Virus record (IMG/VR): IMGVR_UViG_3300028844_003404
Coordinates: 1 to 58,790 of that record
Source of the DNA: a virus
DNA length: 58,790 nucleotides
Strand: one strand, 5' to 3'
Every line of letters begins with the position of its first letter. The first letter of the stretch is position 1. The position numbers and the translations under genes were made by a program. Of the stretch, positions 6,448 to 11,990 are shown piece after piece. The notes beneath the pieces were generated by a model. That model was not told the origin of the DNA and did no database searches. It saw nothing but the letters and a program-made list of their open reading frames with translations.

Positions 6448-7560
6448 TTATATTGAATAAAATTGTCTTGGGAATGCCCGATATTGTAATGATTTATTTA
6501 AGTTTTCAGCTTCGTTAGCCTGTCTTTCCATCATTTTATCAGGTCTTAATCTTTCTAATCTTTGAGTTAGTTCCTCGATTAGTTTTGATTTTTCGTCTTT
6601 TGATTCTGTTAAAAGGGAGTCGTACTCCATTTGTATTTCTGAGTCTGGTGTTTTTAGATTTCCTAAGTACTTTCCTCTTACCCTTCCTAAAGATTCTTTT
6701 ACGTAAGCCGTAAACCACCTTCTAACCCACGTCTGTGCCGGATTATTTAACTCATCCCACAACATTTCATCTATCGGGATGTCTGAAGGTAATCTTACTA
6801 TATCAGGGTTTTCAGCTAAACAAGTCTCTCGGTCATCAGTTTCATAATACCAATACCACACAACATATTGATTATATTGAATGTTACCAAAATCAAATTT
6901 ACCTCCAGGTACGTTCATTAGATGAACTGCCTTTTTACCTTCAGGTAGTGCTGTAATTCTATAAGTTAAATCACCTGAGATTATTCTTCGCTTAATGTTA
7001 ATGTCTTGCATTCTAAGTAACATATCAAATGCGGGTGTTATAAAATAATTTCCCTGAGAACCCATTTGAGAGAATCCCGCTCCACCACCTAATCCTACAC
7101 CACCGAAACCACCGAAACCACCCATAAATGGGTCAAAAAATGCCGCGTCTAATTCTGCCCTACTAAACCATAATAACTCATTAATTTCTCTTCCTGCGGG
7201 TACCTCATAAATTTGTTGTCCAGGAACTAAGGTAATAAAATCTTTTTTTAACACTGAGTCTCCTCCGGCCTGTAAACCAACAATTTTTGAATAGGCATAT
7301 GTGTATTGGGTTTCCCAATCTAAACTACGAGTTATAAACGCTCTAGTTACTGATTGTTCATCTAAATTTAATCCATATAATGATGTCCACTGAGCCTCAA
7401 TTAACCAGTCATTAACATACTGTGCGTAGTCTTGAATTGATAATTCCATTAGTGAGTCCATCATTTCATCGGTAATTTCTACACCGCGTAAGGGAGCACC
7501 TAATAGGTGTTTTATACGAGTATATAGTTTACTTCTTTGTGGTTCGTTAATTGCTGACAT
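6448..7560 (-). CDS. 13: Neck protein, gp13-like
   Basis: 370 aa. The N-terminal segment, with LGAP followed by acidic residues, a run of Asp/Glu-rich helix and a Tyr-rich end (residues ~15-50), resembles the start of T4-family neck protein gp13, which closes the portal and forms the head-tail neck. T4 gp13 is about 309 aa; the extra length is partly a glycine-rich insertion (residues ~145-168, GGFGGFGG and GLGGGAG). The C-terminal third is a charged helix/coiled coil rich in Glu, Lys and Arg. The ATATTTAT motif lies on the same strand 14 bases upstream of the ATG. In T4 gp13 and gp14 are adjacent; here the gp14-like gene (11005) is on the other strand, three genes away. The assignment rests on pattern memory, not an alignment. 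Confidence 0.6.
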   Translation of the reverse strand: MSAINEPQRSKLYTRIKHLLGAPLRGVEITDEMMDSLMELSIQDYAQYVNDWLIEAQWTSLYGLNLDEQSVTRAFITRSLDWETQYTYAYSKIVGLQAGGDSVLKKDFITLVPGQQIYEVPAGREINELLWFSRAELDAAFFDPFMGGFGGFGGVGLGGGAGFSQMGSQGNYFITPAFDMLLRMQDINIKRRIISGDLTYRITALPEGKKAVHLMNVPGGKFDFGNIQYNQYVVWYWYYETDDRETCLAENPDIVRLPSDIPIDEMLWDELNNPAQTWVRRWFTAYVKESLGRVRGKYLGNLKTPDSEIQMEYDSLLTESKDEKSKLIEELTQRLERLRPDKMMERQANEAENLNKSLQYRAFPRQFYSI

Positions 7561-7574
7561 AATGTGTTTTATAT

Positions 7575-7582
7575 ATAAATAT
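7575..7582 (-). promoter_or_regulatory. ATATTTAT candidate phage promoter, gp13-like gene
   Basis: ATATTTAT on the minus strand, followed by ATATAAAAC, 14 bases upstream of the start at 7560. Confidence 0.5.
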
Positions 7583-7599: not shown

Positions 7600-9159
7600 T
7601 CAAGACTTATATTGAGACTCTTCGTCAAAAACATACTCTCCATTTTCAATTTGGGTGTTGTTATTATCAAATACCATTATTCCTCTGCCTTTGTTATGAA
7701 ATACTAACATATCAGTTTTATATTGTTTTATAACACCAGTTCCGACCATGGTTATTTTACCGTCTTCAACAGTATAATCTCTAAATGGTTTTATTTGTAC
7801 AGTTTTATCTCCATTATCAGTTCTTATAATTGCATCAACACCACCGATAGCATCTATAACACTACCTAATTCGCCGACTTTTTTTACGTTAGAGACTCCG
7901 AATACTTTTTGTAATTCTTTTACCGCTAAGTTTTCGGTTTTATCACCTTGTTTATTTCTTCTATTAACTGCGGTGTACATCGCATCAAACGTGTTGGATG
8001 TATTTTTAAATAGTCGGTCTTTCCAATGAGTGATATATTTTAAAAATCGATATAACTCTTTTATTTGTTCATTTTTACTTTTTCCGTAAAAACTAATAGG
8101 TGGATGTCCGTAGTGTTTTAATGCGACGTTAATGTCATTTTTTAAAATACAAAATGTAGTGGCGTTTGTATTGATTTTATTTAATACGGACCTGCCCCCT
8201 TCAACATTACCATTATACTCAAAGTCATATATACCTGACAGTTGTTCCCCTTGTTTTTCTCTCCAATAATCTTTAAAAATTTCTTTAAAAACTTTATCAA
8301 TTAATGTACGATATTTCCATTTTATTTGAGGGTTAGTGTTAAATAAATCTATAGTTTGTCTAACTTGTTTTGAGTTACATCCCTGACTTTCAATCTCAAC
8401 GAGGAGATTTTTTTTATTAAAAGATTCTTTTATTGTGGATTTAGGTTTAGATGAGTATAAACGGTTAACAAAATCCCAATTCACCACTGACCAAAAGTTT
8501 TTTATATAATCATCTTTTTTATTTCTATATTTTAAATAATAAGAGTGTTCCCATAAATCCAAACCTAATAATGGACGACCACCGTATTTAATCGTGTTCA
8601 TAAGGGGGTTGTCTTGATTTGCCGTGGTCATTATTTTTAACCTATTATTTTTTGTCAAAACAAGCCATACCCACCCTGAACCAAATCTTTTTTGGGCTGC
8701 GGATTCAAACAATTTTTTAAAATTATTAAATGTTTTATATTCTTTAATAATTTTTTCATAAATTTCTCCTGAACATCTTTGCTTTTTAGGACTTAACATC
8801 TTCCAAAACAATGCATGGTTGAAAGCTCCTCCAGCATTATTTTTTACCGTTTTATCGTACATTGATATTGTTTTTACAATATCTTTTAGTTTTTTGTCCT
8901 TACCCTTATTATCTTTTATAGCGTCATTAAGTTTATTAACATAACCTTTATAGTGCTTATTGTAATGTACGTTCATAGTTTCCTTATCTATAAAACGTTC
9001 TAAGGCTGAATAAGAGTAAGGTAATCTTTCGATACCTATTTTTTTCATTTCTTTTAAAATTTCTTTTGGGACGTTAGGTGATAATTTTCTTTTTATCCCT
9101 TCACTTATAATCTGATTTTCTATGTCAGTTATTTTATTTAATGTTCTTTTAGTTCCCAT
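7600..9159 (-). CDS. Superoxide dismutase fused to PD-(D/E)XK-like nuclease domain
   Basis: 519 aa. Residues ~45-237 are an Fe/Mn superoxide dismutase. All four metal ligands are present: H65 (VHYNKH), H115 (FNHALFW), D201 and H205 (DLWEH); active-site Y73 and second-shell H69 are also there. NNAGG before H115 and NQD with Q182 point to the Mn-type (or cambialistic) form. Residues ~245-519 are an extra domain not found in ordinary SODs. Its end has E409, D442 in GGVDAII, and Q455-I-K457, the E...D...(E/Q)xK layout of restriction-type nucleases. The first 20 residues (ending QIISE, then G) look like a T4-type capsid-targeting leader cut after Glu by the prohead protease. If so, the protein would be packaged and injected. 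Own-strand TATTTAT lies 11 bases upstream. SOD identity is firm; nuclease and leader are inference. Confidence 0.9.
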   Translation of the reverse strand: MGTKRTLNKITDIENQIISEGIKRKLSPNVPKEILKEMKKIGIERLPYSYSALERFIDKETMNVHYNKHYKGYVNKLNDAIKDNKGKDKKLKDIVKTISMYDKTVKNNAGGAFNHALFWKMLSPKKQRCSGEIYEKIIKEYKTFNNFKKLFESAAQKRFGSGWVWLVLTKNNRLKIMTTANQDNPLMNTIKYGGRPLLGLDLWEHSYYLKYRNKKDDYIKNFWSVVNWDFVNRLYSSKPKSTIKESFNKKNLLVEIESQGCNSKQVRQTIDLFNTNPQIKWKYRTLIDKVFKEIFKDYWREKQGEQLSGIYDFEYNGNVEGGRSVLNKINTNATTFCILKNDINVALKHYGHPPISFYGKSKNEQIKELYRFLKYITHWKDRLFKNTSNTFDAMYTAVNRRNKQGDKTENLAVKELQKVFGVSNVKKVGELGSVIDAIGGVDAIIRTDNGDKTVQIKPFRDYTVEDGKITMVGTGVIKQYKTDMLVFHNKGRGIMVFDNNNTQIENGEYVFDEESQYKS

Positions 9160-9170
9160 TATTTTTATAT

Positions 9171-9178
9171 ATAAATAA
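9171..9178 (-). promoter_or_regulatory. TATTTAT candidate phage promoter, SOD-fusion gene
   Basis: TTATTTAT on the minus strand, followed by ATATAAAAA, 11 bases upstream of the ATG at 9159; nearly identical in sequence to the motif before the gp13-like gene. Confidence 0.5.
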
Positions 9179-9198: not shown

Positions 9199-10983
9199 TC
9201 ACCTTTCTTGTGAAATCATATTTAATATTTCTTCCATTACATCACCTTTACCTTCATTATCCCCCATGACTGTTTCAAAAATATTTTTCTTTTTAGTTAG
9301 TATATTATATATAATACCTTCTATTGTATTTTCTAATATCGGGTAATAAACTGAAACTGAGAACTTTTGTCCATATCTATACGCCCTATCTTCGGCTTGT
9401 GAATGGTCAGCAGGAACAAAAGATAGGTCATTCATTATAACTGCCTCTGCGGATGTTAGGGTTATTCCTACTCCCGCAGCTTTTAGATTACCTACAAAAA
9501 CTTTGATGTCATCATTGTTTTGAAACTCGTCTACAGATTCCTGTCTTTTAGGTTTGGTCATTTTACCGTCTAATTTAACTGACTCTTTTCCAAAATGTTC
9601 GTTTATTTTATTTAGTGTGTCTGTAAAATTTGTGAATATTATTACTTTTTTTCCTTGGTCTATTATGTTTTGAGCGATTTCTATGGTGTCCTTTATTTTT
9701 TCTTCAGCAATAACCTGACGAACCTTCATTAACTTAGAAAATTGTATTGTTAGTGAGCTCGAATCCTCTGAAGAATTATACCAGTCATAGTACTCTCCCA
9801 TCAATTTTTTATATTCTCTAGATTTTGTTCTTAAATAAACGGGGGTTATTATTTTTTCAGGTAAGTCTAAGATATCTTCCTTTAATCTTCTTAATACTTG
9901 CGGCTTTGTCCTATCTCTTAACTCTTCTAAATTAGACGCCCCTGAGACATTCCAAACTCTTTTACTACCGACACTGAATTGATACCCCGCACAATACCTT
10001 ATAGCATAAGCCATCCAATTCTCCGCCACTGGTGAATCTACTAAATCTAAAAGATTATAATAATTCATCGGTCTTGAGGTCATCGGAGTTCCCGTGAGTA
10101 ACCATACTTTTCCTATTTTGTTTGCGATGTCATTCGCTATTTTTGTTCTTTGAGCTTTTTTATTTTGAACGTAGTGTGCTTCGTCCATTACAATTAAATC
10201 AAAACCATAATTTAAAATTTCTGATTTGTCGGGGTGTTTTGGGTCGTGAAAGTTTTTCAAGATATCATAATTTATAATGGTATACTCAGAAGGTTCCCAT
10301 TTCTTACCCTCAATAATTGATATGGACTTATCCGTGTAGTTTTGTATTTCTCTTTCCCAATTAATTTTTAAAGACGCTGGACATATAATTAACACTTTTT
10401 CTATTCCCATCTCTAATGAAGCAATAACTGTTGAGGTTGTTTTTCCGAGACCCATATCATCGGCTAATATGTACTTATCATTACCCACAAGCTTTTCTAT
10501 TGATTCTTTTTGATGTGAAAGTGGAGGTCTATGTGAATATTTACTATAATCTATTTTTACTTCCCGTTGTTTGTTTTTTGTCAACGCAACCTTAGGTAAC
10601 CATATGTCTGTAAGATTTTCACTCTCAAATAACTTACCCCATATGTGGTATGACTTTTCTTTCTCCACCAATAATTTTTCCACATAAATTTTTTCGGGCC
10701 TCTTTGGTAGTAGTTTGTCGTTCATTAACTTTTGACCAAAGTAACTATCAAGTTCAACCCATCTTCTCGCAACTTTGGGGGTTGTGTCTTTAAATTTAAT
10801 TATGTAGTCCGCTTGAGCTCGAGTAAGTTTAAAATGATTAAACTTTTTCATTTTATCCTGTAAACGGATAATATAATTATTATACCCCTCGTACTTCTCT
10901 AAAATACGAAGAGCTCTCACTTCAGGTAAGCTATTTAATGTTTTATTTTCCAAAAGTCGACTAAATACACTTAAATATAACAA
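9199..10983 (-). CDS. SNF2-family (SMARCAL1-like) DNA helicase/translocase
   Basis: SNF2-type superfamily 2 ATPase, up to 594 aa. In the longest reading frame, Walker A is DDMGLGKT (K181), the Walker B box is DEAH (267-270), motif III is LTGTP, and the C-terminal lobe has QAEDRAYRYGQ (motif VI). Such enzymes translocate on DNA and remodel or anneal forks; a role in phage replication or recombination is likely, in the niche that UvsW fills in T4. The start is uncertain: the longest frame begins with TTG at 10983. Other options are TTG at 10953, with ATATTTAA on the same strand about 17 bases upstream, or the ATG at 10851. A TAA lies five codons above the first TTG. The gene is head-to-head with the gp14-like gene, 21 bases apart. 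Confidence 0.9.
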   Translation of the reverse strand: MLYLSVFSRLLENKTLNSLPEVRALRILEKYEGYNNYIIRLQDKMKKFNHFKLTRAQADYIIKFKDTTPKVARRWVELDSYFGQKLMNDKLLPKRPEKIYVEKLLVEKEKSYHIWGKLFESENLTDIWLPKVALTKNKQREVKIDYSKYSHRPPLSHQKESIEKLVGNDKYILADDMGLGKTTSTVIASLEMGIEKVLIICPASLKINWEREIQNYTDKSISIIEGKKWEPSEYTIINYDILKNFHDPKHPDKSEILNYGFDLIVMDEAHYVQNKKAQRTKIANDIANKIGKVWLLTGTPMTSRPMNYYNLLDLVDSPVAENWMAYAIRYCAGYQFSVGSKRVWNVSGASNLEELRDRTKPQVLRRLKEDILDLPEKIITPVYLRTKSREYKKLMGEYYDWYNSSEDSSSLTIQFSKLMKVRQVIAEEKIKDTIEIAQNIIDQGKKVIIFTNFTDTLNKINEHFGKESVKLDGKMTKPKRQESVDEFQNNDDIKVFVGNLKAAGVGITLTSAEAVIMNDLSFVPADHSQAEDRAYRYGQKFSVSVYYPILENTIEGIIYNILTKKKNIFETVMGDNEGKGDVMEEILNMISQER

Positions 10984-11004: not shown

Positions 11005-11520
11005 ATGAGTAATAGAAAGGTTCCAATTACAAGATTAGAAAAGTTTTTCGGAGCGGAAGACTTTGAGTTAGATATCGCAATGGGTCGAGAATGGCTTGAG
11101 GGTGATATGAACTTTAGGTTGGTTTTATATAGAATCGACCAACAAAAAACTGTAACTGATGATGTTTACGGCGAAACCGTAGAAGATGGTGTCAAGTTTC
11201 ATCCTCCTGTTGAGTTTAGGGGGTACGTCCAAATAGAACAACCTGAAAATCAAAATTACGGCAATAGTAATATGACACAAATGGAACCTGGTAATTTAAA
11301 AGTCGGTGTATATCAAACTACTTTAGATGAATTAGAAATAGATATTAATTATGGAGATTATATAGGTTACTATGAAACTGAATCTCGTGTTAGGTACTAC
11401 TCGGTATCTAATGACGGGAGAGTCACGAGTGATAATAAACATACTTATGGTGGTTACAAACCCTATTATAGGTCAATTACAGCATCACCTGTTAGTGAAA
11501 ATGAATTTAGAGGATTATGA
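11005..11520 (+). CDS. 14: Neck protein, gp14-like
   Basis: 171 aa. The layout resembles T4 gp14: a 'D-D-V-Y-G-E' element (gp14 has a similar IFGED), then a beta segment, then 'GDYIGYYETESRVRYY', which parallels the GDLIYFP...LFEI region of gp14. gp14 completes the neck that joins head and tail. T4 gp14 is longer (256 aa); this one lacks most of the C-terminal extension. It is the first gene of an operon followed by an unknown gene and a gp15-like tail terminator, as expected for a neck block. Its stop overlaps the next start (ATGA). The assignment is from motif order and position. Confidence 0.55.
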   Translation: MSNRKVPITRLEKFFGAEDFELDIAMGREWLEGDMNFRLVLYRIDQQKTVTDDVYGETVEDGVKFHPPVEFRGYVQIEQPENQNYGNSNMTQMEPGNLKVGVYQTTLDELEIDINYGDYIGYYETESRVRYYSVSNDGRVTSDNKHTYGGYKPYYRSITASPVSENEFRGL

Positions 11521-11990
11521 AAAGTTATCTGATAAAAGAAATAAATAAAATGAAGACCCAAATGGGGTTGGTTGTTGAACAGGAGGAAGAGTTAACCCCT
11601 GAGGATTTAACTGGCTTAAGGGTTATGGTGTATTATAACTTACATAAACATACATTTTCCGTAACTTATGGTGGAAAAGTAATATTATACGCCGATTATG
11701 TTAAATTAAGAAATGTGGAGTTTAGGGTAAGAAAGGGGGGTCAAGACAAAGTAAGACAGGAAATGAGAAAGAACGTACATGCTTTTGTTATTGGTAACTT
11801 AGTCGACTACTGTCAATTTCCTTGTGAAGAAATGCCTGAGGAAACTAATGATAACGTAATTACATATAACCCATACAAATATGATTCATTCGTTAAAAAA
11901 GATAGTGAAGAACCGATTTATAATGCAAATGAGATTGATATGATTAACACCCGAAATAAAATCTTCCATATAAATGAGATAGTAAACTAA
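11517..11990 (+). CDS. Conserved phage protein of unknown function
   Basis: 157 aa. Start overlaps the preceding stop by four bases and its own stop overlaps the next ATG (TAATG), so translation is coupled. The middle has a pattern I recall from many phage genomes without assigned function: VYYNLHKHTFSV, a Val-rich strand, then KNVHAFVIGN. The first ~25 residues are a charged helix ending in VVEQEEE and are unlike the rest, as in proteins with a removable leader. T4 has no gene between 14 and 15, so this is an addition. A virion or tail-completion role is possible from context only. Confidence 0.7.
   Translation: MKSYLIKEINKMKTQMGLVVEQEEELTPEDLTGLRVMVYYNLHKHTFSVTYGGKVILYADYVKLRNVEFRVRKGGQDKVRQEMRKNVHAFVIGNLVDYCQFPCEEMPEETNDNVITYNPYKYDSFVKKDSEEPIYNANEIDMINTRNKIFHINEIVN

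What the first reader, a model, noticed from the sequence alone, without database searches (positions are those of the whole stretch)
7600..9159. Phage superoxide dismutase fused to a nuclease-like domain
A complete Mn/Fe-SOD domain (ligands H65, H115, D201, H205) continues into a ~275-residue domain ending with an E409 / D442 / Q455-x-K457 pattern like PD-(D/E)XK nucleases. An SOD fused to a candidate nuclease in a phage is, as far as I know, undescribed. It could protect injected DNA from oxidative defence while cutting host DNA, or couple redox state to nuclease action. The SOD part is seen directly; the nuclease call and role are inference.
Basis: partly seen in the sequence, partly recalled or inferred. 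Interest (0 to 1): 0.88.

Follow-up and report, generated by a model that had tools for sequence, protein, structure and literature searches.

The report
Phage antioxidant enzyme fused to nuclease
Hundreds of uncultured T4-like water phages carry one protein that joins a complete superoxide-destroying enzyme to a DNA-cutting enzyme fold, with likely cut sites between the parts that suggest both travel inside the virus head into the host cell.

Summary
The 519-aa ORF at 7600-9159 (-) is an intact Mn-type superoxide dismutase (SOD, about residues 38-245) joined in one frame to a nuclease module (256-519) whose last ~117 residues are predicted as a PD-(D/E)XK fold (nearest: Hjc resolvases). SOD ligands and E409/D442/Q455/K457 are invariant in 40 non-redundant homologues. 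The fusion recurs in hundreds of IMG/VR contigs, always in the same four-gene block beside a head-completion gene; the nuclease part was found in no cellular genome and, in GenBank phages, only as a SOD-less relative in one huge-phage genome.

New here: (1) the SOD is a removable cargo: related phages keep the nuclease at the same locus after in-frame SOD loss (at least two losses); (2) conserved (L/I)-x-E sites, the T4 prohead-protease motif, lie before the SOD, after it and before the nuclease, and the same phages' capsid protein has such a site where T4 gp23 is cut; (3) a promoter-like TATTTAT motif is shared with tail and neck genes, not with polymerase or helicase.

Best reading: a late, head-packaged precursor cut into propeptide, SOD and nuclease and delivered with the DNA. 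Packaging, cleavage and both activities remain untested.

The parts
7600..9159 (-). Whole ORF, 519 aa: propeptide-like N-terminus + Mn/Fe superoxide dismutase + nuclease module
9049..9159 (-). Residues 1-37: propeptide-like, helix-forming N-terminal segment ending in a conserved (L/I)-x-E site (E37)
   Evidence: alignment of N-termini; [LI]xE at E37 in 83% of 77 non-redundant homologues; cleavage is inferred
8425..9048 (-). Residues 38-245: complete Mn-type superoxide dismutase; ligands H65, H115, D201, H205; second-shell H69, Y73, W119, W163, Q182, W203, E204, Y208 all invariant
   Evidence: Pfam, PDB sequence match, alignment, structure match Z about 20
8395..8424 (-). Linker, residues 246-255, between two conserved (L/I)-x-E sites (E245 in 92%, E255 in 96% of homologues)
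   Evidence: cleavage is inferred
7603..8394 (-). Residues 256-519: nuclease module = helical middle region with GRSxxNKxNTN motif (322-332) + PD-(D/E)XK domain
   Evidence: alignments A1, A2 and A3, model
7603..7953 (-). Residues 403-519: predicted PD-(D/E)XK nuclease fold; E409, D442, Q455-x-K457 invariant
9170..9177 (-). TATTTATA motif just upstream of the ORF; TATTTAT within 60 nt upstream in 53 of 58 distinct homologous upstream sequences; shared with gp13-like, tail-sheath and other structural genes, not with DNA polymerase or helicase
9199..10983 (-). SNF2/UvsW-like helicase, upstream neighbour in the same block
   Evidence: Pfam SNF2-rel_dom 7.5e-26 and PHROG DNA helicase 3e-105
6448..7560 (-). 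Head-completion / head-tail connector protein (gp13-like), downstream neighbour, with its own TATTTATA motif at 7574-7581
   Evidence: phrog_211 4e-10; similar to a 'putative head completion protein' of Flavobacterium phage immuto
6114..6446 (-). Small 110-aa protein, last gene of the conserved four-gene block
   Evidence: conserved synteny

Best explanation
The gene encodes a late, head-associated precursor of a large clade of T4-like phages. After synthesis with the other virion genes, its N-terminal propeptide would bring it into the prohead, where the phage's gp21-type protease would cut after (L/I)-x-E at three places: after residue 37, freeing a normal-length MnSOD; after 245; and after 255, freeing the PD-(D/E)XK nuclease. 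Both enzymes would then sit in the mature head and enter the cell with the DNA. The SOD would remove superoxide around the incoming DNA and takeover proteins. The nuclease would cut DNA, most likely either host DNA or branched/protruding phage DNA at the packaging and neck stage. Shown here: the fusion, its conservation, the two folds (model and sequence level), invariant catalytic residues, the conserved (L/I)-x-E sites at domain borders, a gp21-type protease gene in 8 large relatives, the upstream motif shared with virion genes, and repeated loss of the SOD part alone. Inferred: late expression, cleavage, packaging, injection, both catalytic activities and the nuclease's target.
For: Intact SOD with all ligands and second-shell residues invariant at 48-74% identity to the window protein. 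Nuclease fold with E-D-QxK placed as in the fold: E in the first helix, D at the start of a strand, QxK on the next. (L/I)-x-E at E37 (83%), E245 (92%) and E255 (96%) of 77 sequences; two or more such sites in 71 of 77 linkers against 12.8 in shuffled linkers; only 13 of 94 conserved Glu columns in nine neighbour families carry the motif. gp21 cleaves after L/I-X-E (PMC9026906). Peptidase_S77 is found in 8 large relatives; all 8 capsid proteins examined have an invariant LINE|A site near residue 60, where T4 gp23 is cut, resembling K(L/I)NE|S in the linker. TATTTAT upstream: this gene 91%, gp13-like 100%, sheath 98%; polymerase 7%, helicase 8%. Fixed position next to the gp13-like gene. SOD-less homologues at the same locus keep (L/I)-x-E sites; L211 lacks the SOD while its nuclease is 93% identical to that of fused L219. 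Precedent: the chlorovirus PBCV-1 SOD is a late gene product packaged in the virion (PMC7019647).
Against: No proteomics, cleavage or activity data exist for this clade. The (L/I)-x-E motif is short, and Glu-rich linkers carry it by chance fairly often (shuffled linkers: 41 of 77 have at least one); one conserved helix site in the nuclease part (E368, 71%) and a buried SOD site (E204) fit it too. A free DNase packaged with the genome needs restraint or selectivity that I cannot show. The distant huge-phage homologues (L154, L158) have neither SOD nor propeptide, so the nuclease can act without this route. TATTTAT is not the textbook T4 late promoter (TATAAATA); calling it late is inference.
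Confidence: 0.5

Rival explanations
1. Head-completion nuclease: the C-terminal module does the job of T4 gp4 (trimming or checking DNA at the filled head before the neck closes) and works uncut, with the SOD as a fused accessory.
For: Sits directly upstream of a gp13-like head-completion gene and shares its upstream motif. Neither gp4 profile (phrog_218, PF08722) hits any of the SOD-bearing relatives searched, although both ring in the 735-kb phage. T4 gp4 is itself a PD-(D/E)XK protein (PMC1189080) whose DNase is needed for packaging (PMC7824862 citing Benler 2020).
Against: No sequence relation to gp4/TnsA: no such hit for this protein. The 735-kb phage has both gp4 and the SOD-less homologue, so they are not simply interchangeable. 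Does not explain the conserved protease-type sites. Some relatives are fragments, so absence of gp4 is weak.
Confidence: 0.22
2. Intracellular recombination or packaging nuclease: an Hjc-like resolvase for branched replicating DNA, working with the adjacent SNF2/UvsW-like helicase; the SOD protects DNA from oxidation in the infected cell.
For: Closest folds are archaeal Hjc resolvases (Z 8.0). Helicase is the fixed upstream neighbour. No T4 endonuclease VII above cut-off in the genomes searched.
Against: Shares the upstream motif with virion genes, not with the helicase or polymerase. Hjc similarity is at fold level only and other PD-(D/E)XK enzymes score within 1 Z unit. The endonuclease VII profile had no positive control in that search.
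Confidence: 0.18
3. The SOD part is only a structural or solubility module and the nuclease part is a dead scaffold; neither is catalytic.
For: No activity has been measured. SOD can be lost without loss of the gene.
Against: All metal ligands, second-shell residues and E/D/Q/K are invariant, as expected under selection for catalysis.
Confidence: 0.07

Closest known systems
T4 internal head proteins (IPI-III, Alt) processed by prohead protease gp21
   Same: N-terminal propeptide-like segment, L/I-X-E cut-site motif, gp21-type protease in the genomes; expression with virion genes is inferred from a shared upstream motif
   Different: Carries two enzymes in one chain with motifs between them; T4 internal proteins are not SODs or nucleases; virion presence not shown
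Mn/Fe superoxide dismutase (SodA type), nearest cellular forms mainly Bacteroidota
   Same: Whole domain, ligands, fold
   Different: Embedded between a propeptide and a nuclease; the phage SODs form one clade apart from the bacterial ones sampled
Free-standing SODs of other phages (Pseudomonas PA5oct/MIJ3 group, Vibrio phage 2.275.O)
   Same: SOD encoded by a large phage
   Different: Single-domain, about 26-27% identical, among host-takeover or metabolic genes, no nuclease
Archaeal Hjc resolvases and other PD-(D/E)XK nucleases (I-Ssp6803I, NhoI, HhaI, DpnI)
   Same: Fold and position of the E-D-(E/Q)xK residues
   Different: No sequence-level relation; extra 145-residue helical region with GRSxxNKxNTN motif; Q replaces the usual D/E of the xK motif
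T4 gp4 head-completion nuclease (TnsA-like)
   Same: PD-(D/E)XK superfamily, head-completion context
   Different: No profile match; different size and architecture
Chlorovirus PBCV-1 Cu/Zn SOD
   Same: Late, virion-packaged viral SOD (PMC7019647)
   Different: Unrelated enzyme class, free-standing, eukaryotic virus

Membership tests
Mn/Fe superoxide dismutase | Both Pfam SOD domains, complete, in order | tested here: met
   Sod_Fe_N 4e-24 and Sod_Fe_C 3e-38
Mn/Fe superoxide dismutase | Three His + one Asp metal ligands and second-shell His/Tyr/Gln/Trp/Glu | tested here: met
   H65, H115, D201, H205 and H69, Y73, Q182, W163, W203, E204, Y208 invariant in 40 sequences; role of each second-shell residue from general knowledge of the family
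Mn/Fe superoxide dismutase | SOD fold | tested here: met
   Z about 20-21 over 184-198 residues to solved SODs, though the SOD part of the model has modest pLDDT
Mn/Fe superoxide dismutase | Dismutase activity | not testable with these tools
   needs purified protein
PD-(D/E)XK nuclease | Alpha-beta core fold | tested here: met
   Confident model; matches are almost all PD-(D/E)XK enzymes, best Z 8.0, 104 residues, 3.5 A; Foldseek best E 7e-3, so the match is at fold level
PD-(D/E)XK nuclease | Conserved acidic residues and (D/E/Q)-x-K | tested here: met
   E409, D442, Q455, K457 invariant in 40; equivalents kept in the SOD-less huge-phage homologue
PD-(D/E)XK nuclease | Metal-dependent DNA cleavage | not testable with these tools
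   needs purified protein
T4 gp4 / TnsA-like head-completion nuclease | Match to PF08722 or phrog_218 | tested here: not met
   no hit for this protein at E up to 1, while T4 gp4 hits both
Hjc Holliday-junction resolvase | Sequence family match | tested here: not met
   No Hjc family match in Pfam at E up to 1; no Hjc sequence among the PDB matches shown
Hjc Holliday-junction resolvase | Closest structural match and junction cleavage | tested here: inconclusive
   Hjc ranks first (Z 8.0) but NhoI, HhaI and I-Ssp6803I lie within 1 Z unit; cleavage not testable
T4-type internal head protein | L/I-X-E prohead-protease sites at domain borders | tested here: met
   E37, E245, E255; clade calibrated on its capsid protein
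T4-type internal head protein | gp21-type protease in the same genome | tested here: met
   Peptidase_S77 in 8 large relatives, including the 270-kb contig whose copy of the protein is 93% identical to the window's; not checked in this 58.8-kb fragment itself
T4-type internal head protein | Late expression with virion genes | tested here: inconclusive
   shared TATTTAT upstream motif, no transcript data
T4-type internal head protein | Presence and cleavage in the virion | not testable with these tools
   needs virion proteomics

The most novel reading that the evidence does not exclude
A phage head polyprotein: a prohead protease releases an active superoxide dismutase and an active nuclease inside the capsid, and both are injected with the genome, making antioxidant enzyme delivery part of infection in a large, uncultured T4-like clade, with the SOD as an exchangeable cargo.
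Probability: 0.4. Interest if true: 0.82.

Novelty: new variant of a known kind. Interest (0 to 1): 0.68.

Why it matters
Phage SODs are known, as far as I could find, only as free-standing genes of unclear use. Here a SOD is built into a conserved gene of an abundant aquatic phage clade (more than 590 matching stretches in IMG/VR), beside head-completion genes. If it is packaged, phages deliver a ready-made antioxidant enzyme and a nuclease at the moment of infection, before any phage gene is expressed. The close pair of phages with and without the SOD part (L219 and L211) makes its value directly testable, and the conserved protease-type sites offer a way to predict other injected cargo from sequence alone.

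Tried and rejected
PHROGs: no family for this protein. A DNA-pattern search with the nuclease module in cellular genomes found nothing, so it appears phage-specific within that search's reach. GenBank phages: only SOD-only matches and the SOD-less 735-kb phage homologue; MT835505 (H29) is a bacterial SOD in an 'unverified' record, not a fusion. Searching with the huge-phage homologue alone found no kin; an alignment query did. Textbook T4 late promoter TATAAATA upstream: found in 1 of 81 upstream regions, which led to TATTTAT. Split gene in L191: the SOD and nuclease frames part inside the linker, a frameshift in one contig that may be an error. DNA-end-protector profile (phrog_429): no hit, but no positive control, so nothing follows. 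VIA search of the full-length model reported only the SOD; the nuclease had to be folded alone. Redox-coupled nuclease action: no evidence for it; SOD loss with nuclease retention speaks against an obligatory coupling.

Full report
OBSERVATION. The ORF at 7600-9159 (-) is 519 codons with an ATG start. Pfam finds a complete two-domain Mn/Fe SOD at residues 44-233; the best solved relatives are bacterial MnSODs. Residues 240-519 match no Pfam or PHROG family above cut-off.

DISTRIBUTION. A search with the C-terminal alignment gave 486 relatives. Every IMG/VR locus from these two searches, plus the window record, holds SOD and C-terminal part in one open frame. In GenBank phages the best matches cover the SOD alone, and the nuclease module is found only in a 735-kb uncultured phage as a free 290-aa protein. 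A scan of cellular genomes with the nuclease module found no relative. UniProt already holds a 501-aa relative, called just 'superoxide dismutase'.

FOLD AND ACTIVE SITES. Across 40 non-redundant sequences (48-74% identical to the window protein) all four SOD ligands and the second-shell residues are invariant, as are E409, D442, Q455 and K457. The full model matches SODs at Z about 20. The C-terminal module folded alone has pLDDT 86 and pTM 0.81; residues 403-519 match PD-(D/E)XK enzymes, led by Hjc (Z 8.0), NhoI, HhaI and I-Ssp6803I. Single scores of Z 7-8 are weak alone; the weight comes from nearly all matches being one superfamily plus the invariant E-D-QxK residues in the right structural elements.

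CONTEXT. In all 20 relatives laid out, the gene sits in the same block: SNF2/UvsW-like helicase, SOD-nuclease, gp13-like head-completion protein, small ORF, all on one strand and flanked by oppositely oriented DNA polymerase and neck/tail genes. Capsid (gp23) and prohead protease (Peptidase_S77) genes are T4-type. The nearest named phages by the gp13-like protein are Flavobacterium phage immuto and Microcystis phage Mel-JY01. The SOD's best cellular matches are mostly Bacteroidota, and the phage SODs form one clade against 32 bacterial ones; this sample was chosen by similarity, so the source phylum is a lead, not proof.

THE SOD IS REMOVABLE. Searching with an alignment led by the huge-phage homologue brought in SOD-less proteins of 280-320 aa. 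Apart from the huge-phage pair, those laid out lie at the same locus with the same neighbours and nest among fused forms on the nuclease tree: one clade of four rows (support 100), plus L211, whose partner is the fused L219 (support 100). L211 and L219 nucleases are 93% identical and the SOD is missing by a clean in-frame deletion. Three large SOD-less records (272, 318 and 215 kb) have no Sod_Fe_C domain anywhere, while each fused record searched has exactly one. Deeper branches of the tree are uncertain (long branches at the root).

PROTEASE-TYPE SITES. T4 gp21 cuts after L/I-X-E (PMC9026906). Of the Glu columns conserved in at least 60% of 77 homologues, those with [LI]xE in more than 80% are E37, E245, E255 and the SOD active-site E204. 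The first three lie just before the SOD, just after it and just before the nuclease; their P2 position varies while P3 stays L/I. Background: 13 of 94 conserved Glu columns in nine neighbour families; two or more sites in 71 of 77 linkers against 12.8 for shuffled linkers. All eight capsid proteins examined carry an invariant LINE|A near residue 60, like the known T4 gp23 site (gp23 loses a 65-residue propeptide, PMC9026906). SOD-less forms keep sites such as VLSE|S, or SINE|M and IISE|G. Cutting would leave an SOD of normal length (38-245) and a nuclease of 264 residues.

EXPRESSION. TATTTAT lies within 60 nt upstream of this gene in 53 of 58 distinct sequences, of the gp13-like gene in 56 of 56 and of the tail sheath in 48 of 49, but of DNA polymerase in 3 of 46 and of the helicase in 5 of 62; shuffled sequences give 2-9%. 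The gene thus seems to be expressed with virion genes; timing itself is inferred.

MECHANISM. Together these point to a head-packaged precursor processed into SOD and nuclease. A viral precedent for a late, packaged SOD exists in chlorovirus PBCV-1, where infected cells show less superoxide than with a SOD-less relative (PMC7019647). The nuclease's substrate is open: injected nuclease, gp4-like DNA trimming or junction resolution. gp4 profiles hit no fused genome, which keeps the gp4-like rival alive, but the nuclease is not a gp4 family member by sequence.

VERDICT. Real, widespread, and not described in the papers I could search; both halves belong to known enzyme superfamilies, the combination and the predicted processing are new. 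Catalysis, cleavage and packaging are untested.

Noticed in passing
window 7574-7581, 9170-9177; upstream of 13328, 17636, 19154, 21323, 44341: A TATTTAT(A/C) motif shortly upstream of virion genes across the clade (71-100% for several families, shuffled 2-9%), absent from polymerase and helicase: a candidate late promoter that differs from T4's TATAAATA.
   Followed up: partly
L191:6923-8484: SOD and nuclease frames part inside the linker (frameshift): either a contig error or a natural split of the fusion.
   Followed up: partly
L154:7743-8615 and L158:7965-8852: Free SOD-less homologue in a 735-kb huge phage and a relative, without propeptide; the huge phage also has a gp4 homologue.
   Followed up: partly
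BFVD entry A0A8D9CCA0 (1113 aa, uncultured marine phage): Structure match to the nuclease module (TM 0.78 over the query) inside a much longer protein: possibly another fusion partner.
   Followed up: no
window 11517-11990: Relative of mycobacteriophage L5 gp82 (Pfam Phage_L5_gp82, 1e-31) in a T4-like phage neck region.
   Followed up: no
upstream of most window genes: A-rich start regions without an evident Shine-Dalgarno sequence, in keeping with a Bacteroidota host (by eye only).
   Followed up: no
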